In this document: positions 42,629-62,564 of the stretch, piece after piece
Numbering within the stretch: the first letter of the stretch is position 1
How the letters are laid out: the number at the start of each line of letters is the position of its first letter
NCBI GenBank assembly: GCA_030426085.1
Contig: JAUHYW010000030.1
Coordinates: 1-64,000 of the forward strand
Length of the DNA stretch: 64,000 nucleotides
Direction: 5' to 3'
DNA from: a bacterium
GTDB lineage: Bacteria > Myxococcota_A > Bradymonadia > UBA7976 > UBA1532
Notes under the pieces: model-generated
What the model was told of the DNA's origin: nothing
The model's input: the letters and a program-made list of their open reading frames with translations, nothing else
Database searches by the model: none
Position numbers and translations under genes: made by a program

Positions 42629-42737
42629 GCCGAGGCGCCCGAGCCGGCCCGGCGGCGCTTCATTTCGAGATTCTGCGCAACAACCGCTCCGGCTGATCGA
42701 TGAGGTCTTCGAGACCACGATGTGCTCGGAGGCCGCG

Positions 42738-43679
42738 ATGCCCCGCCCGCTGATGTTCGTCCCCCGGCCCTGGACCCCGTTCGAAATCACGATGCGCTGC
42801 ATGCACAGCCGCCTGCTGATGCGGCCGGGCGACGAATGCAGCCGGCGGGTGCTGGGCGTGATCGGGCGGGCGCTGGAGCTGTACGGCGCGCATGTGCACC
42901 TGTACTTCGCGGGGGGCACGAGCAACCACCTGCACATCGTGGGGGCGTTCGAGAGCGCCGAGTGGAAAGCGCGGTTCAAGTGCCACATCAAGGCCAACAT
43001 CTCGAAGGAGCTGGGCGAGCTGTTCGACTGGCCGGGCAGCTATTGGGACCGGCGCACGCGGGACATCGCGATCCTGGATGACGGGGCCTTGGCGGATCGG
43101 CTGGCTTACCTGGCTGCGCACGGGGTGAAAGAGGGTCTGGTCGAGACCCCGGGTTGCTGGCCCGGGATCCAGTGGGTGCGGGCGGTGACGGAGGGCCGGC
43201 CGCTGGTGGGGGTGTGGTACGACCGCAGCCGGCTGTGTGCGTTGCGGCAGCGGTGGGCGCAGGGCGGGCGGCGCGGCCCGAAGCCGACGCTGGGGGACGT
43301 GGCGCTGCGCAAGGTGGTGCGGCTGACGCCGCCGCCGATGTGGGCCGGGTTGGGAGAGGACGTGCTGCGGGCGAAGTGGGTCGAGCTGGTGGAGCTGGCG
43401 GTGGAGCGGCATCCGGCGCCGTGGCCCACCCGGGTGGTGGGGGCGGCGGCGCTGGTGGAGGCGGACCCGCATACCCGGCCGCCGCGCACGAAGACGTCGC
43501 CGGCGCCGCGGGTGCATACGCGGTGCAAGGCGTTGCGGAAGGCGTGGGGCGAGGCGTACAGCGCGTTCGTAGAGGCGTACCGGGCGGCGCTGCACGCGCT
43601 GCGGGAGGGGTGGGGGGCGGTGGGGTTCCCGGAGGAGGGTTGCCGGCCGGCGGTGCTGCTGCCGGAGGCGGGCGGGTAG
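42738..43679 (+). CDS. REP-associated tyrosine transposase-like (Y1, HUH) protein
   Basis: 313 aa; ATG at 42738, six bases after a GGAGG site. The HUH metal motif is NHLHIVG near residue 58 and the catalytic Tyr is probably that of LADRLAYLAAHGVKEGLVE, matching the layout of IS200-type/RAYT transposases. The C-terminal ~150 residues are an Arg/Ala-rich extension with an RRGPKPTLGD basic patch, which is absent from minimal Y1 enzymes and suggests DNA binding. It stands alone with no flanking inverted repeats that I can see. Clusters of short GGTGCCNGGCACC palindromes lie on its right within 4 kb, so it may mobilise or maintain them. Note: RAYT membership is inferred from motif spacing. Confidence 0.78.
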   Translation: MPRPLMFVPRPWTPFEITMRCMHSRLLMRPGDECSRRVLGVIGRALELYGAHVHLYFAGGTSNHLHIVGAFESAEWKARFKCHIKANISKELGELFDWPGSYWDRRTRDIAILDDGALADRLAYLAAHGVKEGLVETPGCWPGIQWVRAVTEGRPLVGVWYDRSRLCALRQRWAQGGRRGPKPTLGDVALRKVVRLTPPPMWAGLGEDVLRAKWVELVELAVERHPAPWPTRVVGAAALVEADPHTRPPRTKTSPAPRVHTRCKALRKAWGEAYSAFVEAYRAALHALREGWGAVGFPEEGCRPAVLLPEAGG

Positions 43680-44033
43680 CGCGCGGCGGGCTCGCGCAAG
43701 CGTGAGCAGGATGCGGGTTGGCGGGGCGCCGGGGTCGGGCGTGTGGGGGAAGTACGTTCAGGGCGCATGTGTAGGCGCCGTCAGGCAGCGGAGGTGGTGT
43801 CCCGTGGTGGCCGGGGAGGGGCCAGATAGCCGAGTTCGATACTTGCCTACCCCTCTTCTCGGTACCGCGTCCTCTACCTTCATGAGATGGTTGGCACCCC
43901 AGCACCACCGCACCCCATTCCGGCACCCCATTCCGGCGTACGAGACGGCCCTGGAAGGCGGGCAGGATGCGCTGCTGACGCATGTGCTCGAGCGGCGGGC
44001 CCTGATCCTCGACCTGCATCCAGGGTGGGCAGA
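43680..44033. other. 354-bp gap after the RAYT-like gene
   Basis: I see no supported gene. It contains a perfect 13-bp direct duplication of CACCCCATTCCGG (43911-43936). A plus-strand frame reading LLTHVLERRALILDLHPGW looks protein-like and may be a remnant of an eroded gene, but no start or family is evident. Confidence 0.5.
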
Positions 44034-44450
44034 TCACATGCCCAGGGACTCCAAGTACTCGGCGATGACCGCGACCGCCTTGTTGGTGTTGCCCTGGGAG
44101 CGACCTTCGACGGTGTGCCCGACCACGACCGCCGTCCTGGACTTCTGCGCCGTGATCGCGCCCTCACCCTTCTTCTTGCCGAGCACCATCCCGTCTTCGC
44201 CCCTCAGGAACTGGTACCTGACCCCCCCAGCCCGGATCCCAGCGGCCTGGAGAACCGAGAAATCTCCGCTCTTCAGCGCTGCGGCGAGGTACGACCCCTC
44301 CGCCTGGGTCAACTCCCAGCTGCTCGGGTGGGCGCCCGACGTCCAGGGCGAGCCATCGAGCCCGATGATGCATGCGCGGTCACATGCCGGCTGCCCGGAG
44401 GCATCTCTCGACTGTCCGATCAGATTGTCGATGTAGCTATCCCAAGACAT
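44034..44450 (-). CDS. Eukaryote-type profilin
   Basis: 138 aa, preceded by GGGGAGG. The full-length sequence follows the profilin fold from end to end: MSWDSYIDNLIG with W3 and Y6 in the polyproline-binding positions, IIGLDGSPWTSG near residues 28-39, AGGVRYQFLRGEDGMVLGKK in the central beta-sheet, GEGAITAQKSRTAVVVG and the C-terminal helix AVIAEYLESLGM with Y132 and the normal terminal Gly-Met. This order, plus the normal ~130-140 aa length, matches eukaryotic (amoeba/plant) profilins, which bind actin and polyproline. Bacterial profilins are rare. No actin-like gene is in the window. Codon use and GC are lower than in neighbours by eye, suggesting transfer. Cytoplasmic; no signal peptide. 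Confidence 0.88.
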   Translation of the reverse strand: MSWDSYIDNLIGQSRDASGQPACDRACIIGLDGSPWTSGAHPSSWELTQAEGSYLAAALKSGDFSVLQAAGIRAGGVRYQFLRGEDGMVLGKKKGEGAITAQKSRTAVVVGHTVEGRSQGNTNKAVAVIAEYLESLGM

Positions 44451-44832
44451 CGCCGCTGAGCCTCCCCGGTGGCAGGGTGAATCGGTCGGGCCACCACCGA
44501 CTGCCGGCCATGATAGAGAAGCGTCTGCCGGACGTCGAGGCAGCTGACTGACCGAGGTGCCTGACCGAGGTGCCCGGCACCACGATCAGCACCACGATCA
44601 GCACCTGACCGAGGTGCCCGGCACCACGATCCAGAGGTGCCCGGCACCACGATCCAGGCCCCGACCCCGCTCGACCGGGTGGATTCGGGCCCGGTGCGCG
44701 AACGGTGCCCGAGGGCGAGGCTGTCGATGGACCCGTTCCACCCCTCACTGTCGTCCCATGCCAGAGAAGTGGAGTACACGTACCGGCCGAACGCGCGCTG
44801 CATGTCGGTCTCCCAACCCGGGCCGGCGTGAT
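44451..44832. other. 382-bp intergenic region with REP-like cluster
   Basis: Between the profilin start and the DUF4240 stop. Its centre is the palindrome cluster at 44549-44660. A minus-strand frame reading MQRAFGRYVYSTSLAWDD from 44803 looks protein-like for about 35 residues and then runs into the repeats; I treat it as a possible gene remnant, not a gene. Confidence 0.45.
44549..44660. repeat. REP-like palindrome cluster 2
   Basis: Three perfect GGTGCCCGGCACC palindromes (44569-44581, 44613-44625, 44636-44648) separated by CACGATCAG/CCAGA-type spacers, plus incomplete copies at the left. The unit is CCGAGGTGCCCGGCACCACG. It shares the core with the clusters at 2.2, 45.3 and 46.2 kb. Confidence 0.88.
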
Positions 44833-45228
44833 TCAGGCGTCGGGCCGCCAGCGACCGAAGCGGTCGGTGCAGGCCATCACGATGTGGCCGGCGAACATCG
44901 GGCGGCGGATGTCTCCGCGGCGGGGGAAGGTGCTCGGATCGGCGAGCGTCGCCCGGTAGCGGGCCTCGCCCTGGGTGATGATCCAGTTGGCGATGAGCTC
45001 GAGCGTCTCGACGGACTCTTCGCGGAGGTCGGGCGCCAGGCCGGCGAAGCAGGACTTCACCAGCGCCTCCATCAACCCCTTGTACTGGCTGTAGACCTCG
45101 CGCAGCGCGGGCTCGTCCAGGTCGGCGAGGGCGGCCACGAACACCTCCGGCCGGCCCTCGGCGGCCTCGATACGGCGCCAGAACCCGGCGGGCACGGTCT
45201 CGATGGTCCAGTGGGGCAGCGGCAGCAT
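44833..45228 (-). CDS. DUF4240-like protein
   Basis: 131 aa, ATG after GAGGAGG. FWRRIEAAEG near the start, a central amphipathic region and NWIITQGEARYRATLADPST at the end match the typical DUF4240 layout (FWxLI opening, xWLIAQGxxxFxxALxDP close). The family has no established molecular role; members are small cytoplasmic proteins often found near toxin-like or Rhs-type genes, which would fit this accessory region, but no such gene is seen next to it. Repeat clusters lie on both sides. Confidence 0.68.
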   Translation of the reverse strand: MLPLPHWTIETVPAGFWRRIEAAEGRPEVFVAALADLDEPALREVYSQYKGLMEALVKSCFAGLAPDLREESVETLELIANWIITQGEARYRATLADPSTFPRRGDIRRPMFAGHIVMACTDRFGRWRPDA

Positions 45229-45238
45229 GGGCCTCCTC

Positions 45239-45372
45239 GACCGAATCCAGATAAGGTGCCCAGATAAGGTGCCCAGATAAGGTGCCCGGCACCTGATCCG
45301 GAATCCAGATAAGGTGCCCGGCACCTGATCCTGATAGCACCTGATCCAGGCAGCACCTGATCCAGGCACCCG
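45239..45372. repeat. REP-like palindrome cluster 3
   Basis: Two perfect GGTGCCCGGCACC palindromes (45281-45293, 45313-45325), each inside CCAGATAAGGTGCCCGGCAC followed by CTGATCC; two truncated AGATAAGGTGCCC copies lie before them and AGCACCTGATCC half-units after. It sits between the DUF4240 start and the next gene's stop. Confidence 0.88.
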
Positions 45373-45434
45373 TGCCTACCAGCGCCACCTCGCCAGGAGT
45401 CCCTGCCTACCAGCGCCACCTCGCCAGGAGTCCC
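45373..45434. repeat. Perfect 31-bp tandem duplication at a gene's 3' end
   Basis: Two direct copies of a 31-bp unit beginning TGCCTACCAGCGCCACCTCG (45373-45403 and 45404-45434). The second copy encodes the final residues and stop of the lipoprotein gene at 45407-45973; the first is its downstream duplicate, adjoining the palindrome cluster. Confidence 0.85.
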
Positions 45435-45973
45435 CGACGCTCTCCCAAGGGATCGAGCATCGGGACCAACGACACCGATCGAGCCCTGTCAAAAGCTTCT
45501 CGTGAGTCGCTCTCGAGGTGATGCCCAGCCAGGATCGCCGCTCCACCGATCACCGCGATGATGCCTCCTGCAAGCATCGCGCCGGCGCCGCCCATGATCT
45601 CCTCGACTCGATATCCGTCGTAGCCTGCGTCGGGATCCGATTCGACGCTGGCGTATACTGCCGCGCCCACCAGGAGTGTGACCCCGCCGATACCCACGAC
45701 GATCCCCCCGGCAAGCTGCTCGGTTTCACCCGCATGCCGGACCCTGGCGACGCCCCGCCTATCGAAGGTCTTCGTATGACCCCATTTGTCGGTGAGCGTG
45801 ATGCGTCCACTTTCGGCTTGCTGCACTCGCCCCTTCAGCGTGGATCCATCCTTCATGTGGACCACGGTCTCGGAGCACGCTGTGGCGAGGTTCAGAGACG
45901 CCGTCAGCACCAGGGCGACGAGCAAGGATTGACACACACGGCCCGGGCCCACCCCGAGTTCGTCCCTGTTCAT
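45407..45973 (-). CDS. Exported membrane protein with an SH3/LSm-like segment
   Basis: 188 aa. A signal-like hydrophobic segment (residues ~14-32) ends ATAC, a weak lipobox. Residues ~35-80 (VVHMKDGSTLKGRVQQAESG, then RITLTDKWGHTKTFD) form a small beta-barrel pattern like bacterial SH3 or LSm-type domains. Two further hydrophobic Gly-rich helices (~89-108 and ~126-148) would place it in the membrane. Its DNA is visibly lower in GC than the chromosome average in the window. The gene's 3' end is part of a 31-bp tandem duplication. No family recognised. Confidence 0.6.
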   Translation of the reverse strand: MNRDELGVGPGRVCQSLLVALVLTASLNLATACSETVVHMKDGSTLKGRVQQAESGRITLTDKWGHTKTFDRRGVARVRHAGETEQLAGGIVVGIGGVTLLVGAAVYASVESDPDAGYDGYRVEEIMGGAGAMLAGGIIAVIGGAAILAGHHLESDSREAFDRARSVSLVPMLDPLGERRGLLARWRW

Positions 45974-46149
45974 CCTTCAATCCTCCAGGCTTCTCGGCGC
46001 TGTGGGTCGGGCTGTTCGACAACACTAGCCTCACCCGAGAACGAGCGCAAAGGGCGCCCACGGCCTGTGACCGCAGGAGCGCAGCAACGGGGTGACCCGG
46101 CGTTGACCCGGCGTGGCGGGCACGTGTTCGGGTGCGGCCCGCTCGGGTA

Positions 46150-46194
46150 TCACTTCTTGTAGTCGATGCGCCCGATCTCTTCCCTGGCCTTCAC
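46150..46194 (-). other. Possible displaced C-terminus of the neighbouring lipoprotein
   Basis: On the minus strand 15 codons read VKAREEIGRIDYKK then TGA. They follow the palindrome unit that begins right after the stop of the lipoprotein gene at 46239. The sequence is protein-like, so the repeat may have separated it from that gene. This is inference. Confidence 0.4.
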
Positions 46195-46195
46195 C

Positions 46196-46240
46196 CGGGA
46201 TCGAGGTGCTGTCCGGGATCGAGGTGCCGGGCACCTTGTC
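46196..46240. repeat. REP-like palindrome cluster 4
   Basis: One perfect palindrome GGTGCCGGGCACC (46223-46235) and one truncated copy in CCGGGATCGAGGTGC units. It overlaps the stop of the lipoprotein gene and adjoins the displaced coding-like segment to its left. Confidence 0.85.
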
Positions 46241-46550
46241 AGCAGTCGTACAGCGGCTCGATCAAGAGCTCGCTGCCCCCCCGGGTGGGCGCCTCGAAGC
46301 CGTCGATCGGGATGACGGTCTCACCGAGGGTCAGCCGCCCCCGGGCGACGCGCAGGCGCGGCACGTCGTCCTGCACCCCGGCGAGACCGGCGGCCGGCGT
46401 GACCGCCAGGGGCGCGGCCGCCTGCTGCGCGGGCGTCGGGTCGGCGTCGGCGAGGGCCCGCGCGTCCGGGGCGGAGGCCTCGTCCCGCTGGCAACCGGGC
46501 GTGCAGCAGAGGGCGAGGGCGAGCAGCGAGGCGGGCGGTGGACGGCGCAT
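46239..46550 (-). CDS. Small lipoprotein, possibly truncated by a repeat insertion
   Basis: 103 aa. Signal MRRPPPASLLALALCCTPGC gives a lipobox Cys near residue 20. An Ala/Asp/Pro linker follows, then a short domain ending LTLGETVIPIDGF, EAPTRGGSELLIEPLYDC. The end is abrupt: the palindrome cluster begins at the stop and coding-like sequence (VKAREEIGRIDYKK) resumes 47 bases further in another frame. If joined, the domain would end IEPLYD...VKAREEIGRIDYKK. The original start is chosen because upstream codons belong to the 42-bp satellite and are not needed. Function unknown. Confidence 0.6.
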   Translation of the reverse strand: MRRPPPASLLALALCCTPGCQRDEASAPDARALADADPTPAQQAAAPLAVTPAAGLAGVQDDVPRLRVARGRLTLGETVIPIDGFEAPTRGGSELLIEPLYDC

Positions 46551-46692
46551 GGGGCCAGCATGCCGGGGGCTGCGGGGGTCGGCAAGCGCCGGTGGAGTCG
46601 CTCTCGTCGTCCGCCATGCGCGTCCTCGTCTTCGTGAGATGACATCGGAGTTGGTCGCGCGGTCGAGGAGCAAGCGCCCGTGTCCGAGATCG

Positions 46693-47400
46693 GGAGGCGA
46701 CTCGACACAGCGATCGCCCTCACGCCTGAAGTCCGGGTCCGGCCGGAAAAATCGATCGCCCTCATGCCTGAAGTCCGGGTCCGACCGGAAAAATCGATCG
46801 GCGTCATGCCCGAAGTCCGGGCCCGACCGGAAAAATCGATCGCCCTCATGCCTGAAGTCCGGGTCCGACCGGAAAAATCGATCGCCCTCATGCCTGAAGT
46901 CCGGGTCCGACCGGAAAAATCGATCGCCCTCATGCCTGAAGTACAGCCCCCACCCGCCCCACCGGTCGGTCGGGGCCGATGCCCGACGGGTCGGACCCGG
47001 CCGCCAGACGCGACGGCGATCTGCGCGCCGGGTCCGACCTGCGCGCGGGTTCCAGCGCCGAGCGGGTGAAGCGGGTCCGACCCGTCCGCCCGCCCGGAAC
47101 CGGATCCGCCGCGCGGGTCCGACCCGTCCTCCGGGCATCACGCCGATCGCGCGCGCGGGTCCGACCCGTCCGCCCACTCAGAGCCGGATCCGCCGCGCGG
47201 GTCCGACCCGTCCTCCGGGCATCACGCCGATCGTGCGCGCGGGTCCGACCCGTCCTCCGGGCATCACGCCGATCGAGCGCGCGGGTCCGACCCGTACCCC
47301 AGGCATCACGCCGCTCGAGCGCGCGGGTCCGACCCGTCCGCCCGCTCCGAACCGGATCCGACGCGCCGGTCGCACCCGGACACCGGCCCCCGGCGAGGCG
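46693..47400. repeat. 42-bp-period satellite array of about 16 units
   Basis: Left half (46693-46945): units of GTCCGGGTCCGACCGGAAAA plus ATCGATCGCCCTCATGCCTGAA, with GGG landmarks at 46735, 46777, 46819, 46861 and 46903, exactly 42 apart. Right half (46988-47400): CGCGCGGGTCCGACCCGTCC followed by one of two alternating 22-bp segments, with landmarks at 47073, 47115, 47157, 47199, 47241, 47283 and 47325, again 42 apart. Both halves share GGGTCCGACC, an inverted repeat, and the phase runs through both with one 1-bp slip. All this lies between the lipoprotein and protease genes (857 bp without a supported gene). Confidence 0.9.
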
Positions 47401-53030: not shown

Positions 53031-54194
53031 TCAGGGCGCGTCTTCGTCGAGCGGCGGTGAGGGCCGGGGCGCGGGCGGCGGCGGGGCGTCGACCGCGCGG
53101 CGCAGGCGGTCGAGCGGGTCGCCGGTGCGGGCGCGGAAGGCGGCCCGCAGCACCTCGGTGGAGAGCGCGTCGGCCTGGGCCCCGTCGACGTGGGCCCCGC
53201 CGCCGGCCGCGGCGATGGCCCGGTGCTGGGGGCGCACGATCCGGTCGTGCTCCCGGGTGATGCCCCGCCGGCGGCCGTAGCCCGGGGGCGGGGTCGAGAG
53301 CACGTAGATCCGGCCGCCGTCGGCGGCGAAGCGGCGGGCGGTGTCGAGGCACGGGCGGGCGCCGGGGTCGTCGGCGGCGGCGTCGCTGGTGGCGATGATC
53401 AGCTTGATGGCGTCGGGGCGCCAGCGGGCGGCGGCGCCGGCGGCGAGGCCGCCGCAGAGCCACTCGGGGCGGTCGTCGTCGACGGCGGTGCTGGTGGCCT
53501 CGATGTCGGCGAGGAAGCCGCCGAGCTCGGCCTCGTCGGCGGTGAGCGGGTGCTGCTCGAGGCGCAGGCCGGGGGCCTCGCGGCGGTCGCGGAAGACGAC
53601 GGCGCCGACCCGGGCGGTGGGGCTGACGACCCGCAGGGTGTCGAGGGTGGCGCGCAGGTTGCGCCGGGTGGCGTCGAGGCCGGCGGCCATCGAGCGGGTG
53701 CCGTCGATGACCAGCATCACGTCCACCGGGCGGGCGGTGAGCGGGTCGAGCTCGCCGAGCACCCGGCGGGCGGTCTCGTCGAGCGCGGCGGCCCGGCCCC
53801 GGGCGGCGCGGGCCATCTGCTCGCTCTCGGCGAGGGCTTCGGTCAGGCCGGCCCGGTCGGCGAGCAGGCGCTCCCGGTCGGCGAGCAGGGCGTCGCGCTC
53901 GGCGCGCAGGGCGGCGAGGGCCAGCTCGGCCTCGCTGGCGGCGCCGGTGGCGACCCGGGCGGCGGCCTCGGCGGCCCGCTCGCGGTCGAGCGCGGTGATC
54001 CGGGCGGCCTCGGCCCGGGCCCGGCGGTCGGCCTCGGCGGTCAGCTCGTCCCGGGCGTCGTTGAGCGATCCGCGGATGTGCATGACCGCGACGAGGAACA
54101 GGAGCAGCACGCAGCCCAGCGCGGTGGTGAGGATGTCGGCCAGCGAGGTGCCGAAGACCTCGGCCCCCCGGCGCTTCTCCCGGCGGCGGCTCAC
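53031..54194 (-). CDS. Membrane-anchored von Willebrand A protein with MotB-like helix
   Basis: 387 aa. A basic N-terminus leads to one membrane helix at ~17-40 containing SLADILTTALGCVLLLFLVA; Asp20 in ADILT aligns with the ion-carrying Asp of MotB (AYADFMT) and ExbD. A ~100-residue Ala/Arg/Glu coiled coil (44-145) follows, then a vWA domain (~155-330) with MIDAS start VIDGTRSMA (D164, T166, S168). A Pro-rich C-terminal tail ends the protein. It overlaps the TolQ/MotA-like gene by 4 bp (ATGA), as in known motor-pair operons. In place of the normal peptidoglycan-binding OmpA domain it has vWA, so it would pull on a protein partner. Confidence 0.82.
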   Translation of the reverse strand: MSRRREKRRGAEVFGTSLADILTTALGCVLLLFLVAVMHIRGSLNDARDELTAEADRRARAEAARITALDRERAAEAAARVATGAASEAELALAALRAERDALLADRERLLADRAGLTEALAESEQMARAARGRAAALDETARRVLGELDPLTARPVDVMLVIDGTRSMAAGLDATRRNLRATLDTLRVVSPTARVGAVVFRDRREAPGLRLEQHPLTADEAELGGFLADIEATSTAVDDDRPEWLCGGLAAGAAARWRPDAIKLIIATSDAAADDPGARPCLDTARRFAADGGRIYVLSTPPPGYGRRRGITREHDRIVRPQHRAIAAAGGGAHVDGAQADALSTEVLRAAFRARTGDPLDRLRRAVDAPPPPAPRPSPPLDEDAP

Positions 54195-55351
54195 GGCTCA
54201 CCGTCGGGGTCGTCGCCCAGGGTGTAGGGGGCCGAGCGGTCGGCCTCGGGCAGCTCCAGCGAGAAGGACGGCGGGCGCGCGGCGGGCGTATTTCGAGGCG
54301 CGGGGCCCCGGCGGATGATCATCGGCTGCTCGCCCTGCCGGCGCAGGTCGGCCAGGGCGTCGGCCATGCGGGGCAGCGCGCTGCGGGTCTCCCGGGCGGC
54401 CTGGACCAGCTCGCCCACGGCGCCGTCGATCGGAGGCAGCGCGGCGAGCCGGTCGGCGACGGCCGACAGCGCCCCGTCGATGGCGTGCAGGCTGCGCTCG
54501 ATGCGCTCGACGGTCTCGGCCTGCCGGTCGAGGGCGGCCTCGGCCGGGGTCTGCTGGGCGAGGCCGGCGAGGTCGAGCCGCTGCACGTAGCCCGCGCCCA
54601 GGTCGCGCTCGATGCGCTCGAGCAGGCGCTTGTCCCGGCCTTCGAGGCCGACCTCGAGCAGCTTGAGCGGCACGACGAGCGCCAGGGCGAGCAGGGTGGT
54701 GTCGAAGGCGATGGCCAGCCCCGAGACCGCCGGGATCAGGGCGGCGAGGTCGTCGCCGACGCCGGTGATGACCCCGTCGAAGCTGGCGATGGCCCCGGCC
54801 ATGCCGACGACGGTGCCCAAGAAGCCCGACAGCGGCAGCAGCCACATGGCGGCGGTGAGCGCCCGGTAGTCGTCGTCGACCCGGTCGTGGGCCCGGTCGA
54901 CGGCTTGGCGGGCGGCTTCGAGCAGCTCGTCGCGGGTGGGGCGCAGGGCGCGGAAGTAGCTGAAGACGGCGTAGAGCACGTCCCCGGCGAGGGTGTCCCG
55001 CAGGCGCACGAGCACCTCGAGGCGGCCGGCGAGCTCGTCCCGGGCGACGGCGCCGCGCCACAGGAGGCCCCGGCAGGCGTCGAGCGCCCGCCGCTCGCCG
55101 GTCTGCACGACCAGCCGCCGCAGGATGTGGCCCACGCCCCAGAAGAAGAGCGCGACGGTCAGCGGCTGGCTGAAGCCCCGGCGCCAGAGCAGGGTGTGCA
55201 GGCGGCCGTCGGGGGCGAGCGCGTCGACGGCGAAGAAGACCGCGGCGGTGCCGGCGACGGCGCACAGGAGGGGGATGAGGCGGGTCCAGCCGCCGACGAG
55301 CGAGGCGGTGGCCCGCAAGGCGGGCAGGTCTCGGGGGTGGGCGATGTCCAA
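54191..55351 (-). CDS. MotA/TolQ/ExbB-type proton channel subunit
   Basis: 386 aa. Four hydrophobic segments: about 24-44, 61-80, 162-188 and 196-222. The third and fourth hold the family core, LLPLSGFLGTVVGMAGAI and SGLAIAFDTTLLALALVV, matching ExbB/TolQ/MotA (PLLGLLGTVxG; GLxxAxxxT). A long C-terminal cytoplasmic part (~225-386) is helical and Glu/Arg/Ala-rich, longer than in TolQ, resembling the tail of ZorA-like proteins. The following gene encodes the TM-plus-vWA partner. The giant LTD lipoprotein lies 70 bases upstream in the same direction and may belong to the same unit. Confidence 0.85.
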   Translation of the reverse strand: MDIAHPRDLPALRATASLVGGWTRLIPLLCAVAGTAAVFFAVDALAPDGRLHTLLWRRGFSQPLTVALFFWGVGHILRRLVVQTGERRALDACRGLLWRGAVARDELAGRLEVLVRLRDTLAGDVLYAVFSYFRALRPTRDELLEAARQAVDRAHDRVDDDYRALTAAMWLLPLSGFLGTVVGMAGAIASFDGVITGVGDDLAALIPAVSGLAIAFDTTLLALALVVPLKLLEVGLEGRDKRLLERIERDLGAGYVQRLDLAGLAQQTPAEAALDRQAETVERIERSLHAIDGALSAVADRLAALPPIDGAVGELVQAARETRSALPRMADALADLRRQGEQPMIIRRGPAPRNTPAARPPSFSLELPEADRSAPYTLGDDPDGEP

Positions 55352-55421: not shown

Positions 55422-58400
55422 TCAGGGGTCGCCGCAGTAGGCCCCGAACTCGTCGGGGATGCACACCATGCCGTTGGCGGCGCAGTTCTCGGTGAAGTTG
55501 ATCGGGTACTCGCAGACCCCTTCGCCGTCCTGCTCGACGCACATGCCCTCGCCGAAGAAGCCCACGGTGGTCTCGTCGACGCAGACGTTGGGCTGCAAGT
55601 CGAAGCAGAACACGTCGGCGCAGGGGTCGATGGTGATGGTCAGGTCGACGGCCTGGTCGGCGGTGAAGCCGTTCTGCGACCCGTCGAGGTCGCAGTGCAG
55701 CCAGCTCTGGCCGTTGTCGACGCTGAACCGGAACGCCATGTCGTACGCCCCGGCCACCGCGTTCACCCCGTCGAACCGGGCCTGATACTCGTCGTTGTCG
55801 GGCTCACCCCGCTGGTCGCCGTTCCACCCCGGGGAGTCGATCGCCTGGACCCAGGTCCACTCGGGGTTGCCGTCAGGGTCGGACCCCCGCGGGCCGTAGC
55901 CGCCCTCGGCCCGCAGCCGGGCGTCGAAGTCGACGAACGGCGACTGGTCGGTGATGCCCTCCTCGTAGACGAGGCCGTAGATCTCGTAGGCCGGCGGGGC
56001 GTCGCCTCCGGCCTCCCAGTTGCCGGCCTGCACCGGGAAGGTGAACCGGCAGTAGTCCACGGTGACGTCGACCTCGGGGCACTGGGGGTTGGCCGCCCCC
56101 GGGGTGCCGAAGTTGTCGAGCGCGGGGTCGCCCCCGGGGTCGGCGAAGTAGGGGTCGGCGGCGAGGCACCACTGCACGCCCTGGTCGTTGAGGTCGGCGT
56201 CGAGCGCGTCGGGGTCGAGGCTGATCGCGGCCCCGTTGGCCGCCACGAAGAAGCCGCCGACGTCGTAGTCGAGCACGTCGATGCCCGTCTGGCCGCAGCT
56301 CAGCTCCAGCCGCGATCCGTTGTTGCCGAGCGGGAAGTCGAAGACCTGGGTGACCCCCTGAAGCCCGCCGTTGACCGCGGGGTCGGCGCTGCGGGCGAGC
56401 AGCACGTAGGCCCCGGCGTCGATGGCGAAGTCCAGCGCCAGCGGGTTCGGCTGGCCCTCGGCCTCGAGGGTGCAGCCCTCGAGCACGAGCTGGCGGTCGG
56501 TCGTATTGTACAGCTCGATCCACTCGGCCTGCTCGTCGGCGAGCGCCCCCCGGGGGTTGTACATCACCTCGCTGATGATCACCTCGCCCGCCCCGGCGAG
56601 CGCGTCGGCCGGGATGCAGCGCCCGGCGGCGCACACCTGGCCGATGGCCCCGCAGTCGAGGATCTGGAAGTCGTAGTCGCACACCGGCGCGTCGCCCTCG
56701 AGGGTGCAGGTGCCCAGCTCGTCGTAGATCGCGGCGTTGGTCGCGTCGAGGCACTCGTCCTCGGGCACGTCCACGCAGGGGTTGGGGTCGCAGGCCCCGA
56801 CGACGTCCCCGCAGGGCGGGTTGGGCACGCCGGGGGTCCCGAAGTGGGGCGGCGCGCCGTCGAAGTAGGCCTCCTGCGCGTTGCACCACGCGTCGCCGAA
56901 GTCGTTGAGGTCGGCGTCGATCAGGTCGGGGTCGAGCTGGAAGGCCGCCGCGGCCACGCCGCCGGGGAAGCCGGCGACGGCGTAGTCCACCGCGTCGATG
57001 GTCACCACGCCGCAGCGCAGCTCGACGACGTCGCCCCCGTTGTTGAGGCTGAAGTTGAACAGGCCGTTGGGCCCCAGCCCGCCGTTGTTGGCCGGGTCGT
57101 TGGACCGGGCGAACAGCAGGGTGCCGCCCGGCGGGGCGATCAGATCACCGACCGCCAGCCCGTTGGCCCGGTCGCGCACCTCGCAGGCCGAGAGGTCGAG
57201 CGGCTCGTCGGTGGTGTTGACCATCTCGAACCACTCGCCGAACTGCTCTTCGAGCTCGCCTTCGGTGTTGAACATGATCTCGGTGATGACGATCTCGCCC
57301 GGCGCCGGACCCCGGATCTGGGCGATGTCGCACTGCCCGTCGAGGCAGTTGCCCACCCCGCAGTCCTCCCGGACCTCCTCCGGCTGCAAGCAGCGCGGCT
57401 GGTCGCCGTTCGCCTCGCACACCGAGGGCAGGTAGGTGACGGCCACGTCGCCGTCGCAGAAGGCGGCCGGGGCGTCGGCGCAGGGGTTGGGGTCGCAGGG
57501 GTCGCCCACCGGGCACTCGATGTTGAGCCCCCGGGGGGTGCCGAGGTGCAGCGGGTCGGCGAGGTAGACCGTCTCGGCGAGGCACCAGTTGCGGCCGACG
57601 TCGTTCTCCCCGGCGTCGAGCCGGGCGCTGCTGAGGTTGAGCGAGGCCGCCCGGGCGTCGGGGAACTCGCCCCCGTCGTCGTAGGTGACGGTGTCGATCA
57701 GGGCCCCGCCGCAGCTCAGGGTCACGGTGTCGCCGCCGCCGTTGGTCAGCGAGAAGTCGAAGACGCCGTCCAGGTCGACGAGGCCGCCGTTGAGCGCCGG
57801 GTCGTCGTTGCGGGCGAAGAGCGCGAAGCCCCGGGCCGGGATCTCGACCCCGCCGATGTCGGTGCCGCTCGACCGATCGGCCAGCTCGCAGCCCTCGAGG
57901 TTCAGCGGGCTGCCGGTGGTGTTGTACAGCTCGATCCACTCGGCGTCTTCGTCGGCGAGGGTGCCGTGGGGGTCGTACATGATCTCGCTGACGATCACCT
58001 CACCGACCACCGGCGGGCGCGAGCCGCCGCAGGCCCCGGCGACGCAGACGGTGCCCCCGCAGTCCTCCCGGATCTCGGGGTACTCGCAGGCGGCGAGGCC
58101 GTCATCGCCCACCGCGCACTCGCCCACCTCGGGGTAGCTCACCGCGGTGTTGTCGTCGCAGAACGCGACCGGCGGCGCGAGGCACGGGTTGGGGTCGCAC
58201 GGCGCGACCGGCGGGGTCACCACCAGCCGGCCGGCGTCCTCGACCCGGTAGCCGTCGGACGAGCCGGCGTCGCCGGCGTCGCAGAGCTGCCACGTCCGCC
58301 CGCCGTCGACGCTGAACCGGAAGGCCACGTCGTACTCGCCGGGGGCCGGCATCACGGCGTCGGCCCGCCACTCGTCGTTGTTCAGCTCGCCGAGCGGACC

Positions 58401-61400
58401 GGCGCCGTCGTACTCGTCGTTGGTGAAGCCGGGCACCCACACCCAGGCCGGGTCGTCCATCGGCATCGTGCCGTCGGGGCCGTAGCCGACCTCGGCCCGG
58501 ATGAGGCCGGTGGCGTCGTTGAGCGGGCTCAGGTCGGTCAGGCCCTCTTCGTAGATGCGGCCATAGAACGACTGCACCGTCTGGAACTCGGCCTCGAGGT
58601 CGGTGGGGAACTGCAACCGGCAGAAGTCCACCACGTCGTCGCACGGCGGGTTGGGCGCGCCGGGCGAGCCCCACTGCGCGGGGTCGAGCGAGTAGCGGGT
58701 CCGGGCCGGGCACCAGCTCGCCGGGTCGTCGTTGCCCACGAGGTCGAGCTGGCCGTCGCGCACCTGGATGGCGAACGCCCGCACCGCCGGGAAGCCGGCG
58801 TCCTCGTCGTAGATGACCTGGTCGATGACGATGCCCCCGCACGAGACGCGCAGGGTGTCGTCGGTGTTGTTCAGCCCGAAGTCGAAGGTGCCGGCCACCT
58901 CGATGCCGCCGTTGACCGCGAGGTCGTCGCTGCGGCCGAAGACGGTGTAGCTGCGCGGCTCGAGCACGATGTCGGGGGCCGGGCTCTCGGCGTTGGCGTC
59001 GGCGAACTCGCAGCCCTCGAGCAGCAGCGGCTCGTCGGTGCTGTTGTACAGCTCGAACCACTCGGCGGTGTTGTCGTCGAGGCCGTCGTGGGGGTCGTAC
59101 AGGATCTCGGAGATCACCAGATCACCGGGGAACGGCGCCCGGGGCTCGGCGTCGACGCAGGCCCCGTCGAGGCAGCCGAGGGGGCAGCCGACGATCTCGC
59201 TGGCGTACTCGCAGACCGGGGCCCCGTCCTCCACCGCGCAGGCGCCGAGCGGCGCGTAGATCAGCAGGGTGTCGGCGTCGCGGCACGCGTCGGCCGGCGG
59301 GTCGATGCACGGGTTGGGGTCGCAGGCGTCGACCGGATCACCGACCACGACGTGGCCCGCGTCGGCCGGCTGGTAGCCGTTGATCGAGCCCGGGTCGCGG
59401 TCGCAGTAGGCGTAGCTGCGGCCGTCGTCGACGCTGAAGCGCCACGCCACGTCGAAGCGCCCGGCGGGCAGGGCCGGCAGCAGGCTCAGCCAGGTGTCGG
59501 CGTTCTGGGCGTCGTTGGCCGGGTCGGGCACCGGGTCGAACCACACCCAGGTGGGGTCGACGGCCGGGTCGCTGCCCGCCGGGCCGTAGCCCGCGCCGGC
59601 CCGCAGCCGCACGTCGGCGTCCACCGCCCGGGTGCGATCGGTCAGGCCGGGGGCCACCACCAGGGCGCTGGTCTCGACGTCGGCCCCGTTCACGACGTCG
59701 ACGTCGTCGGGGGCGAGCAGGGTGCAGATGGTGAGGGTGGGGCACGGCGGGTTGGCCGCCCCGGGGGTGCCGTAGTGATCGCCGAGGTCGCCCTCGAAGT
59801 ACACCGACCGGGTGCGGCACCAGTTCGCGCCGTCGTCGTTGGCCGCGGCGTCGTACGCCTCGGGGTCGAGCGAGACGCTGTAGGTCGAGGCCGCGGGGAA
59901 CCGGTCGCCGGCGTCGTAGACCACCGCGTCGATCTCGACCTCGCCGCAGGTCAGGGCGATGCGGTCGCCGTCGTTGCCCAGGCCGAAGTCGAAGGTGCCG
60001 GCCACCTCGAGCCCGCCGTTGACCGCCGGATCGGCGCTGCGGGCGAGCACGATGTAGGCCCCCGGCGCGAGGTTGATCGCCTCCAGCGGGCTCTGATTGC
60101 CCCCGTCGTCGCCGATGCGGCAGCCGTCGAGGCCCACCTCGCGGTCGCTGGCGTTGTACAGCTCGATCCACTCGGCGTCGCCGCTGTCGAGGTCGCCGTC
60201 GGCGTCGTAGAGGAACTCGGTGACGAGCACCTCCCCCGGTTCGGGCGGCGCGGCGGGCACGAAGCACTGCCCGTCGATGCAGCGGGCGCCGATGGGGCAG
60301 GCGAGCAGATCCTCGGCGTAGGTGCAGCGGGCCTGCCCGTCGACCGCCTCGCACTGCCCGGGGGGCTGAGGCTCGATGACGCTCAGCCCGTCGTCCGAGC
60401 AGCGGGGCGCGGGCGGCGCGGGGCAGATGAAGCCGTCGCACAGCTCACCGCCGACCGGGATGGCGGTCAGCGCGCCGGCCTGATCGGGCTGGTAGCCGTC
60501 GGTCGAGCCGTCGCCCAGGTCGCAGTAGGTCCAGGTCGTGCCGCCGTCGAGGCTGAAGCGCCACGCGAAGTCGTAGGCCCCGGGGGCCGGCACGGTGAGC
60601 GTGGTCTGATACTCGTCGTTGTCCGGCTCGCCCCGGGCGGCGCCGTCCCACTCGGGGTTGGGCGCGCCGGCGATCCACTGCCAGCCGTCATTGCCCATCG
60701 GATCGGAGCCGTCGGGGCCGATGCCGGCCTCGGCCATCAGGCCCGGCACGACGTCGATCCCCGGGGTCTGATCGGTGTAGGTGGCCTCGTAGACGACGCC
60801 ATAGACCTCGAACTGCGTATCCTGCTCGGCCCGCACCGACCCGGGAGCCTGGAGCCGGCAGTAGTCGACCGTCGGCGGGGGGCACGGCGTATTGGCCGCG
60901 CCGGGGGTGCCCCGGTTGCCGTCGAAGTACACGTCGCCCAGGGCGGCCGGGCACCAGTTGGGGCCGTCGTCGTTGGCCCCTGCGTCCCGGGCCTCGGGGT
61001 CGAGGCTGATCGAGGCCCCGCTGACCGGAGCGAAGCCCGGCTGGCCGTAATCGACCTCGTCGACGTCGGCCCCGTCGCAGCGCAGCCCGATCAGGTCGCC
61101 CTCGTTGCCCAGGCGGAACTCGAAGATCGCGCCCACCTCGATGTCGCCGTTGATCGCCCGATCGGCGCTGTGCCCGAAGACCAGCCGCTCGCCGGCCCCG
61201 ATCAGGCCGCCCTCGAGCACCTCGACGTTGTCCCCGCCGTCGTAGATCTCGCAGCCGCCCAGATAGCGCGGCCCGTCGGCGAGGTTGAGCACCTCGAACC
61301 ACTCGGCGTCCTCGTCGCTCAGCGGGTCGAGGGCGTCGTACATGATCTCGGTGATGATGACCTCGCCCGCCGCGGGCAGGGGCGCCAGATCGACGCACGC

Positions 61401-62564
61401 GCCGCCCTCGCAGCGCCCGCCGGCCGCGGCGCAGTCCCGCCGCTCGACCTCGTCGTGGGTGCACTGCGCCTCGCCGTCGACCGCCTCGCAGGCCCCGCCG
61501 CCGGCGTAGGTCACCGCGACGTCGCCCTCGCAGGCGGGCGGGGGCGCCTCGGCGCACGGGTCGCCGTCGCACGGGCCGGGCAGCGAGACGAGCCGCCCGA
61601 GCTGCTCGGCCTGGAAGCCGTTGTCCGACCCGTCGAGGTCGCACAGCAGCCAGGTGTCGCCGCCGTCGAGGCTGAAGCGGAAGGTCAGGGCGTAGGTGCC
61701 CGGGGCGGGGGCGTCGAAGGTCGCCAGGTACTGATCGTAGCCCGCCGCGTCGGCCGCCTCGGCGCTCCACGCGGGGTCGGCCTCGGCCGCGATCCAGACC
61801 AGGGCCTCGGGGTCGTCGCCCGCGCCCTCGGGGGCGTAGCCCGCCTCGGCGATCAGGCCCTCGTCGGCGTCGACCCCGTCAGTCAGATCGGTCAGCCCGG
61901 CCTCGAGCACCACCGCCGAGAGGGTGACCGGGGCCCCGGTGAACAGCTCGGCGTCGGCCGGAGCGACGAAGCGGCAGGCGTCGACGCCGGTGTCGGGCAC
62001 GCAGGCGCCCTCTTCGCAGACCTCGCGCGGGCCGCAGTCCTCGGGGGTCGCCTCGTAGAGGCACGCGGCCTCGCCGTCCTCGGCGGTGCAGGCCCCGGCC
62101 CCGTAGGTGACCCGCTGGCCTTCGTCGTTGCACTCGGGCTCGGGCGGGGTGTCGCAGACCGTGTCGGCGCAGGGATCGACCGGCTCGCCGCAGGTGTTGG
62201 TCTCGAGGTCGCAGACCTGCTCGCCCTCGCAGTCCTCGTCGCCCTCGCAGCAGCCCTCGATGGGCTCGACGACGCACTCGCCCTCGACGCAGCGGCCCTC
62301 GCCGCAGACCGCGTCGACCGCGCACTGGATGTCTTCGGTGCAGTCGGGTGGGGTGGCGTCGGGGCCGACGTCGGGGTCGGGGCCCGTATCGGGGTCGGGG
62401 GCCATGTCCGGATCGGGCCCCTGGTCGGGGTCGGTGGTCCCGTCCGTCTCCATGTCCACCGCCGGGCCGGTATCACCGCCCGGATCCTCGGTGTCGTCAC
62501 ACGCGCCGAGGGCGATCGACAACCCGATCGCCCACAGCACCCTCACCCACGCTCTGCGCTGCAT
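55422..62564 (-). CDS. Giant lipoprotein with six lamin-tail domains
   Basis: 2380 aa. The lipobox is in IALGAC (Cys near residue 22), followed by an Asp/Pro/Gly linker and a Cys-rich head (~70-185). Six lamin-tail domains (LTD) are visible, each with a GEVIITEIMYD-like start and WIELYNTTxxPLxLxGCEL: approximately residues 396-558, 776-938, 1145-1305, 1518-1681, 1751-1916 and 1988-2158. Five CRxxxP...EYDxxWRFSxDGG modules, which look like Ig-like units, and several short DPCxxxxCxxPP Cys modules lie between. Such LTD-rich proteins are surface adhesins or nuclease-associated in bacteria. Its DNA is internally repetitive. The function cannot be given further. Confidence 0.88.
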   Translation of the reverse strand: MQRRAWVRVLWAIGLSIALGACDDTEDPGGDTGPAVDMETDGTTDPDQGPDPDMAPDPDTGPDPDVGPDATPPDCTEDIQCAVDAVCGEGRCVEGECVVEPIEGCCEGDEDCEGEQVCDLETNTCGEPVDPCADTVCDTPPEPECNDEGQRVTYGAGACTAEDGEAACLYEATPEDCGPREVCEEGACVPDTGVDACRFVAPADAELFTGAPVTLSAVVLEAGLTDLTDGVDADEGLIAEAGYAPEGAGDDPEALVWIAAEADPAWSAEAADAAGYDQYLATFDAPAPGTYALTFRFSLDGGDTWLLCDLDGSDNGFQAEQLGRLVSLPGPCDGDPCAEAPPPACEGDVAVTYAGGGACEAVDGEAQCTHDEVERRDCAAAGGRCEGGACVDLAPLPAAGEVIITEIMYDALDPLSDEDAEWFEVLNLADGPRYLGGCEIYDGGDNVEVLEGGLIGAGERLVFGHSADRAINGDIEVGAIFEFRLGNEGDLIGLRCDGADVDEVDYGQPGFAPVSGASISLDPEARDAGANDDGPNWCPAALGDVYFDGNRGTPGAANTPCPPPTVDYCRLQAPGSVRAEQDTQFEVYGVVYEATYTDQTPGIDVVPGLMAEAGIGPDGSDPMGNDGWQWIAGAPNPEWDGAARGEPDNDEYQTTLTVPAPGAYDFAWRFSLDGGTTWTYCDLGDGSTDGYQPDQAGALTAIPVGGELCDGFICPAPPAPRCSDDGLSVIEPQPPGQCEAVDGQARCTYAEDLLACPIGARCIDGQCFVPAAPPEPGEVLVTEFLYDADGDLDSGDAEWIELYNASDREVGLDGCRIGDDGGNQSPLEAINLAPGAYIVLARSADPAVNGGLEVAGTFDFGLGNDGDRIALTCGEVEIDAVVYDAGDRFPAASTYSVSLDPEAYDAAANDDGANWCRTRSVYFEGDLGDHYGTPGAANPPCPTLTICTLLAPDDVDVVNGADVETSALVVAPGLTDRTRAVDADVRLRAGAGYGPAGSDPAVDPTWVWFDPVPDPANDAQNADTWLSLLPALPAGRFDVAWRFSVDDGRSYAYCDRDPGSINGYQPADAGHVVVGDPVDACDPNPCIDPPADACRDADTLLIYAPLGACAVEDGAPVCEYASEIVGCPLGCLDGACVDAEPRAPFPGDLVISEILYDPHDGLDDNTAEWFELYNSTDEPLLLEGCEFADANAESPAPDIVLEPRSYTVFGRSDDLAVNGGIEVAGTFDFGLNNTDDTLRVSCGGIVIDQVIYDEDAGFPAVRAFAIQVRDGQLDLVGNDDPASWCPARTRYSLDPAQWGSPGAPNPPCDDVVDFCRLQFPTDLEAEFQTVQSFYGRIYEEGLTDLSPLNDATGLIRAEVGYGPDGTMPMDDPAWVWVPGFTNDEYDGAGPLGELNNDEWRADAVMPAPGEYDVAFRFSVDGGRTWQLCDAGDAGSSDGYRVEDAGRLVVTPPVAPCDPNPCLAPPVAFCDDNTAVSYPEVGECAVGDDGLAACEYPEIREDCGGTVCVAGACGGSRPPVVGEVIVSEIMYDPHGTLADEDAEWIELYNTTGSPLNLEGCELADRSSGTDIGGVEIPARGFALFARNDDPALNGGLVDLDGVFDFSLTNGGGDTVTLSCGGALIDTVTYDDGGEFPDARAASLNLSSARLDAGENDVGRNWCLAETVYLADPLHLGTPRGLNIECPVGDPCDPNPCADAPAAFCDGDVAVTYLPSVCEANGDQPRCLQPEEVREDCGVGNCLDGQCDIAQIRGPAPGEIVITEIMFNTEGELEEQFGEWFEMVNTTDEPLDLSACEVRDRANGLAVGDLIAPPGGTLLFARSNDPANNGGLGPNGLFNFSLNNGGDVVELRCGVVTIDAVDYAVAGFPGGVAAAAFQLDPDLIDADLNDFGDAWCNAQEAYFDGAPPHFGTPGVPNPPCGDVVGACDPNPCVDVPEDECLDATNAAIYDELGTCTLEGDAPVCDYDFQILDCGAIGQVCAAGRCIPADALAGAGEVIISEVMYNPRGALADEQAEWIELYNTTDRQLVLEGCTLEAEGQPNPLALDFAIDAGAYVLLARSADPAVNGGLQGVTQVFDFPLGNNGSRLELSCGQTGIDVLDYDVGGFFVAANGAAISLDPDALDADLNDQGVQWCLAADPYFADPGGDPALDNFGTPGAANPQCPEVDVTVDYCRFTFPVQAGNWEAGGDAPPAYEIYGLVYEEGITDQSPFVDFDARLRAEGGYGPRGSDPDGNPEWTWVQAIDSPGWNGDQRGEPDNDEYQARFDGVNAVAGAYDMAFRFSVDNGQSWLHCDLDGSQNGFTADQAVDLTITIDPCADVFCFDLQPNVCVDETTVGFFGEGMCVEQDGEGVCEYPINFTENCAANGMVCIPDEFGAYCGDP

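What the first reader, a model, noticed from the sequence alone, without database searches (positions are those of the whole stretch)
44034..44450. Orphan eukaryote-type profilin in a bacterial accessory island
The 138-residue product matches the profilin fold along its whole length: W3/Y6 N-terminal helix, IIGLDGSPW, GKKKGEGAIT and the C-terminal AEYLESLGM helix. Profilins act on actin and polyproline; bacteria normally lack them. I recall that a profilin with an actin-like partner has been reported in one myxobacterium, but could not check. Here there is no actin gene in the window, and the GC looks lower than nearby genes, suggesting lateral transfer.
Basis: partly seen in the sequence, partly recalled or inferred. 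Interest (0 to 1): 0.88.

Follow-up and report, generated by a model that had tools for sequence, protein, structure and literature searches.

The report
Bacterial profilin with truncated actin partner
A bacterium (probably a myxobacterium relative) carries a genuine eukaryote-style profilin and, elsewhere in the same genome, a eukaryote-style actin that has lost the parts used to build normal filaments but kept the surface profilin grips, which makes it an unusual natural test of what actin and profilin can do without a eukaryotic cell.

Summary
The profilin is real. The 138-aa ORF lies on the minus strand (44450..44034), matches PF00235 over its full length (99.1 bits, cut-off 25), and is predicted with profilin fold (pLDDT 93.3; best PDB matches are all profilins). 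It is not an orphan. The same genome holds one eukaryote-type actin on another contig (C123:7171-8157, 328 aa, 63% identical to Dictyostelium actin). That actin, and relatives in two other genomes of the phylum, lack residues 38-67 (D-loop), 201-204 and 240-247, i.e. essentially all pointed-end longitudinal contact segments, yet keep 23 of 23 residues of the classical profilin footprint. Profilin is rare: 2 of 379 sampled genomes of the phylum, and both also have this actin. Close relatives sit in Planktothrix, Microcystis, Moorena, Hydrocoleum and a Methylococcaceae MAG. An actin/profilin pair is already known in Microcystis (ActM/PfnM) and an actin in Haliangium (BARP), so this is a new variant of a known kind: unlinked genes, a non-cyanobacterial host, and an actin stripped of its pointed-end face. 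Likely function: profilin binds this actin at the barbed-end face; the resulting assembly is not a conventional filament. Binding and assembly are inferred, not shown.

The parts
44034..44450 (-). profilin gene (138 aa, P0002)
   Evidence: PF00235 99.1 bits, full length; AlphaFold2 pLDDT 93.3; Foldseek top hits are profilins; 55-63% identical to cyanobacterial and Methylococcaceae profilins
44461..44467 (-). Shine-Dalgarno-like GGGGAGG, 10 nt before the ATG
   Evidence: read from sequence
44510..44538 (-). promoter-like site TCGACG-17-TATCAT (consensus match only)
   Evidence: 1 found, 0.1 expected in shuffles; not evidence of function
43750..46250 (.). low-GC patch (66.7% GC against 74.2% for the window) holding the profilin and two small ORFs
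44833..45369 (-). 178-aa ORF upstream of profilin, weak DUF4240-like match below cut-off; relation to profilin unknown
45407..45973 (-). 188-aa ORF, only sub-threshold matches (DUF6232, YgdI/YgdR-like lipoprotein); relation unknown
42720..43679 (+). 319-aa ORF with weak similarity to REP-associated tyrosine transposases (25 bits, cut-off 80)

Best explanation
The gene encodes a functional profilin, of eukaryotic origin, that has passed laterally between bacteria. Its partner is the eukaryote-type actin encoded on another contig of the same genome (C123:7171-8157). Profilin docks on that actin's barbed-end face, which is preserved. Because this actin has lost the D-loop and the subdomain-4 segments that make the pointed-end contacts, the pair does not build conventional F-actin. 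It acts as a profilin-actin complex or as a non-classical, profilin-decorated assembly, as described for Microcystis ActM/PfnM. Shown here: family, predicted fold, co-encoded actin, exact deletions, preserved footprint, rarity and co-occurrence. Inferred: physical binding, the form of the assembly, and the cellular role.
For: Profilin by sequence and predicted fold. One eukaryote-type actin in the same genome. In the phylum sample of 379 genomes, profilin occurs in 2 (G000, G754) and both carry the same D-loop-less actin clade, out of only 5 genomes with such actins (clade support 100/100). Actin deletions at 38-67, 201-204 and 240-247 are identical in G000, G001 and G754, whereas the recalled profilin footprint is 23/23 identical to Dictyostelium actin in each, against 57-60% over the rest (hypergeometric P 4e-6 to 1.4e-5). 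The window's profilin keeps W3, Y6, W36, Y132 and the G120/N123/K124 loop. Precedent: Microcystis PfnM binds ActM, binds monomeric rabbit actin, and decorates and bundles ribbon-like ActM filaments (PMC3254629).
Against: Actin and profilin are unlinked in G000 and G754 (on different contigs). G001, same genus, has the actin (72%) and the same 23/23 footprint but no detectable profilin, so footprint conservation need not be due to profilin. Moorena (2 genomes) and Hydrocoleum drafts have profilin without a detectable actin. G754 profilin is only 36% identical and has A and D at the window's N123/K124. Actin and profilin relationships disagree: G000 actin is closest to G754 outside its own genus (71%), G000 profilin is closest to Planktothrix (63%). 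No complex could be modelled.
Confidence: 0.6

Rival explanations
1. Actin-independent profilin: the protein is kept as a small poly-proline (or membrane lipid) binding adaptor, and the actin is incidental.
For: The poly-proline aromatic set W3/Y6/W36/Y132 is intact in the window, G754, Planktothrix, Methylococcaceae and Moorena profilins; the best structural match is a profilin solved with poly-Pro14; Moorena and Hydrocoleum have profilin without detectable actin; G754 profilin has changed the N/K of its actin-side loop.
Against: The actin-side loop G-x-x-N-K is invariant in the other full-length bacterial profilins. Microcystis LEGE 91341 lost W3 and W36 yet keeps actin and profilin side by side, the reverse of this prediction. 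No run of 5 or more prolines was found in the predicted window genes, and no formin FH2 above cut-off in the genome.
Confidence: 0.2
2. Interaction with eukaryotic cells: the actin, with a barbed-end face but no pointed-end face, caps or sequesters the actin of a eukaryotic prey or host, or titrates its profilin; the bacterial profilin keeps it soluble before release.
For: Only the barbed-end face is preserved; a monomer like this could still sit on the pointed end of a foreign filament. G012, same family, has an actin preceded by an RRxFL Tat-like N-terminus, so at least one actin in the family may be exported.
Against: No export signal is apparent at the N-terminus of P0002 or P0003 (both start at the conserved domain; read from sequence). 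G012's actin is a different one (40% identical, footprint 10/23). No secretion genes were recognised next to either gene.
Confidence: 0.1
3. A recent, functionless lateral acquisition that is decaying.
For: Low GC, patchy distribution, absence from the sister species G001; the Hydrocoleum copy is truncated.
Against: Full-length open frame with a full family match. GC3 is 0.85, well adapted to the host. All comparisons with the window's copy are saturated at synonymous sites (pS 0.78-0.96) with much lower pN (0.28-0.47), and Planktothrix-Methylococcaceae dN/dS is 0.09. The functional residues are preserved.
Confidence: 0.1

Closest known systems
ActM/PfnM of Microcystis aeruginosa PCC 7806 (PMC3254629)
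   Same: Eukaryote-type actin plus profilin in one bacterial genome, of eukaryotic origin. The window's profilin is 55% identical to the profilin of Microcystis LEGE 91341, whose actin gene is adjacent.
   Different: A different host group; the two genes are unlinked here; the actin here lacks the D-loop and two subdomain-4 segments, whereas the LEGE 91341 actin keeps most of subdomain 2 (only residues 46-48 missing there).
BARP, bacterial actin-related protein of Haliangium ochraceum (PMC3035250)
   Same: Eukaryote-type actin in a myxobacterium, probably the same phylum as this genome.
'Candidatus Uab amorphum' actin (PMC6906331)
   Same: Eukaryote-like actin in a bacterium with candidate actin-binding proteins.
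   Different: Planctomycete; the text held contains no mention of profilin; the authors consider an Asgard-related origin possible.
Heimdallarchaeal/Asgard profilins (PMC8410842) and OdinProfilin (PDB 5zza)
   Same: Profilin fold; OdinProfilin appears in the Foldseek list (TM 0.73).
   Different: Only 15% identity by structure alignment, so the window's profilin is eukaryote-type, not Asgard-type.

Membership tests
Profilin (PF00235) | Full-length match above the curated cut-off | tested here: met
   99.1 bits against 25, profile 1-127/127
Profilin (PF00235) | Profilin fold (N- and C-terminal helices packed against a central sheet) | tested here: met
   AlphaFold2 pLDDT 93.3, helices 4-13 and 119-135 with a strand series between; Foldseek best hits are profilins
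Profilin (PF00235) | Poly-proline-binding aromatic cluster | tested here: met
   W3, Y6, W36, Y132 align with the invariant aromatics of plant, amoeba, yeast and mite profilins; their role is from general knowledge; binding not measured
Profilin (PF00235) | Binds actin | not testable with these tools
   Loop G120/N123/K124 kept; partner actin has footprint 23/23; no biochemistry, and no complex model possible
Bacterial actin/profilin system (ActM/PfnM type) | Eukaryote-type actin encoded in the same genome | tested here: met
   C123:7171-8157, PF00022 295 bits
Bacterial actin/profilin system (ActM/PfnM type) | Actin and profilin genes adjacent | tested here: not met
   Different contigs, C87 and C123; also different contigs in G754
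Bacterial actin/profilin system (ActM/PfnM type) | Profilin of the same bacterial clade | tested here: met
   Bacterial profilins against eukaryotic ones split at 99/100 (unrooted, 8 eukaryotic rows; Microcystis represented by strain LEGE 91341)
Bacterial actin/profilin system (ActM/PfnM type) | Profilin-decorated, bundled actin ribbons | not testable with these tools
   needs purified proteins
Conventional actin | D-loop and subdomain-4 contacts for the pointed-end face | tested here: not met
   Residues 38-67, 201-204, 240-247 deleted
Conventional actin | Catalytic Gln137 | tested here: not met
   Arg in G000; not Gln in any of the nine bacterial actins aligned
BARP (Haliangium) | Sequence membership in the BARP clade | not tested
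Syringactin (NF040575) | Score above the equivalog cut-off of 300 | tested here: not met
   113.9 bits, C-terminal part only

The most novel reading that the evidence does not exclude
A bacterial lineage has trimmed eukaryotic actin down to a profilin-binding, barbed-end-only module: the pointed-end face is deleted and the catalytic Gln137 is gone, but the profilin face is kept intact. Profilin and actin then work as a non-filamentous or profilin-integrated complex, a mode of actin function not described in eukaryotes.
Probability: 0.3. Interest if true: 0.82.

Novelty: new variant of a known kind. Interest (0 to 1): 0.64.

Why it matters
Actin and profilin are textbook eukaryotic partners under tight joint constraint. 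Here a natural experiment has freed them from the other actin-binding proteins, and evolution removed one face of actin while keeping the other unchanged. It gives a direct test of whether the profilin-actin interaction is useful without treadmilling filaments, and of the idea that actin's conservation is imposed by its partners. It also extends the eukaryote-type actin/profilin pair from cyanobacteria to a second bacterial phylum, in two genomes.

Tried and rejected
Orphan profilin: rejected, actin found on C123. Profilin carried by phages, viruses or plasmids: no hits in viral contigs, phages or plasmids. Asgard-type profilin: rejected (eukaryote-type PF00235 match; Odin profilin 15% identity). 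Formin partner: no FH2 above cut-off. Contamination by eukaryotic DNA: rejected, since the profilin lies within a 99-kb bacterial contig, has bacterial-like GC3, no introns and a Shine-Dalgarno-like site. Conserved neighbourhood: none; among Planktothrix, Microcystis, Methylococcaceae, Moorena and window loci the only shared neighbour of profilin across genera is actin, in Planktothrix and Microcystis; G754 neighbours are unlike the window's. A shared actin locus between G000 (in a MotA-like/OmpA/DUF2894 cluster) and G001 (next to a prepilin peptidase): not conserved. Structure of the Planktothrix mini-actin: model useless (pLDDT 33, two-row alignment). I did not submit the window genome's actin to structure prediction because its locus came from a tool that is not on the predictor's stated list. 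Two of my own scripts stopped part-way on coding errors (pairwise identities, a first actin tree); the tree was complete and the actin tree was rerun.

Full report
Check of the observation. The ORF at 44034-44450 is on the minus strand and encodes 138 aa. It matches PF00235 over the full profile at 99.1 bits. phmmer against the PDB returns only profilins. An AlphaFold2 model built from six bacterial homologues has pLDDT 93.3 and pTM 0.88, and Foldseek returns profilins as best matches, with TM-scores mostly 0.77-0.84. A GGGGAGG motif lies 10 nt before the ATG. GC is 65.2% against 74.2% for the window.

It is not an orphan. The genome (10.1 Mb, 178 contigs, 95% complete) has one profilin and one eukaryote-type actin, on contig C123:7171-8157 (PF00022 295 bits). 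The actin is 63% identical to Dictyostelium actin over aligned positions. Hits to PF00022 on other contigs of the genome are far weaker (34 bits or less); most control genomes also give PF00022 hits, presumably MreB-like proteins.

The actin is unusual. Aligned to Dictyostelium numbering it lacks 38-67, 91, 201-204, 240-247 and 331-332. From general knowledge of F-actin, 38-65 (D-loop and neighbours), 202-204 and 241-247 are the pointed-end longitudinal contacts. They are essentially all gone: 32 of the 35 residues in my list are deleted and none is identical. The barbed-end list is 40/44 identical and the profilin footprint, listed from recall of the actin-profilin structure literature and not recomputed, is 23/23. 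The chance of 23/23 given overall identity is about 1e-5 for G000 and 2e-8 for identity in all three related actins, assuming positions are independent, which they are not. The same three deletions occur in G001 (same genus, 72% identical) and G754 (another family, 71%), and these three form a 100/100 clade. Gln137 is replaced in all nine bacterial actins aligned: R, D, R, D, D, G, R, A, S. The D-loop is also missing, outside that clade, from Planktothrix and from one of the two G771 actins. Loss therefore seems recurrent.

Distribution. Profilin was found in 2 of 379 genomes sampled from the phylum and in none of the 189 other genomes of the relatives search. It was above cut-off in 3 of 386 cyanobacteria and in 1 of 251 genomes of the order of the Methylococcaceae MAG. 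Both phylum members with profilin have the D-loop-less actin. The converse fails: G001 has actin but no profilin. Moorena and Hydrocoleum drafts and the Methylococcaceae MAG have profilin but no detectable actin; these are drafts, so absence is provisional.

Relationships. Bacterial profilins fall on one side of a 99/100 branch against eight eukaryotic ones (unrooted, small eukaryotic sample, G754 a long branch). The window's copy is nearest to the Planktothrix/Methylococcaceae/Microcystis group (55-63%), although outside its own genus its actin is nearest to G754. The histories of the two genes therefore differ, and transfer between bacteria is likely. Eukaryotic ancestry rests on the actins (up to 77% identical to Dictyostelium actin, in G587) and on established work on Microcystis (PMC3254629).

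Mechanism. The profilin keeps the poly-proline aromatics (W3, Y6, W36, Y132) and the G-x-x-N-K loop on the actin side. The simplest reading is that it binds its own genome's actin at the preserved barbed-end face. Because the pointed-end face is missing, ordinary filaments are not expected; PfnM of Microcystis shows that bacterial profilin can be an integral part of a non-classical actin assembly. Binding, assembly and role are inferences. G001 warns that the barbed-end face may be kept for another reason.

Comparison with the known. The pair works like ActM/PfnM and belongs to the same broad kind, but gene adjacency (a feature of that system) is not met, and the actin is a structural variant. 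The phylum is not named by the tools. I infer Myxococcota from general features (10 Mb, 74% GC, MopE-type metal-binding repeat proteins, genome-size patterns of its relatives); this is not tested.

Verdict: a real, uncommon feature; the orphan claim is wrong; the partner actin makes the case more interesting than the profilin alone.

Noticed in passing
L024:1613-2857 (+), genome G012, same family: A second kind of eukaryote-type actin (414 aa, full D-loop, 53% identical to Dictyostelium actin over aligned positions) preceded by an RRxFL Tat-like N-terminal sequence: possibly an exported actin.
   Followed up: partly
L044 and L045 (genome G771): Two divergent actins in one genome of the same genus as G754; one has lost residues 36-67, the other 41-56.
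   Followed up: partly
all nine bacterial eukaryote-type actins aligned: Gln137, the catalytic glutamine of eukaryotic actins, is replaced in every one of them.
   Followed up: partly
L002:8698-9471 (+), Planktothrix: A 257-aa actin lacking 35-67, 177-240 and 247-268 (most of subdomains 2 and 4), about 530 bp upstream of a profilin.
   Followed up: partly
L003:489-908, Methylococcaceae MAG: Profilin 91% identical to the Planktothrix one, near the end of a contig whose other genes look gammaproteobacterial: recent transfer between phyla or MAG contamination.
   Followed up: no
window 43910-46942: Dense short perfect tandem duplications, including a 42-bp unit repeated 5.5 times at 46711-46942.
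   Followed up: no
window 55422-62564 (-): 2380-aa protein with six lamin tail domains (PF00932), next to a MotA/ExbB-like gene at 54191-55351.
   Followed up: no
L014:3030-9648: In this genome the actin gene sits between a MotA-like coiled-coil gene and OmpA and DUF2894 genes, all on the same strand.
   Followed up: partly
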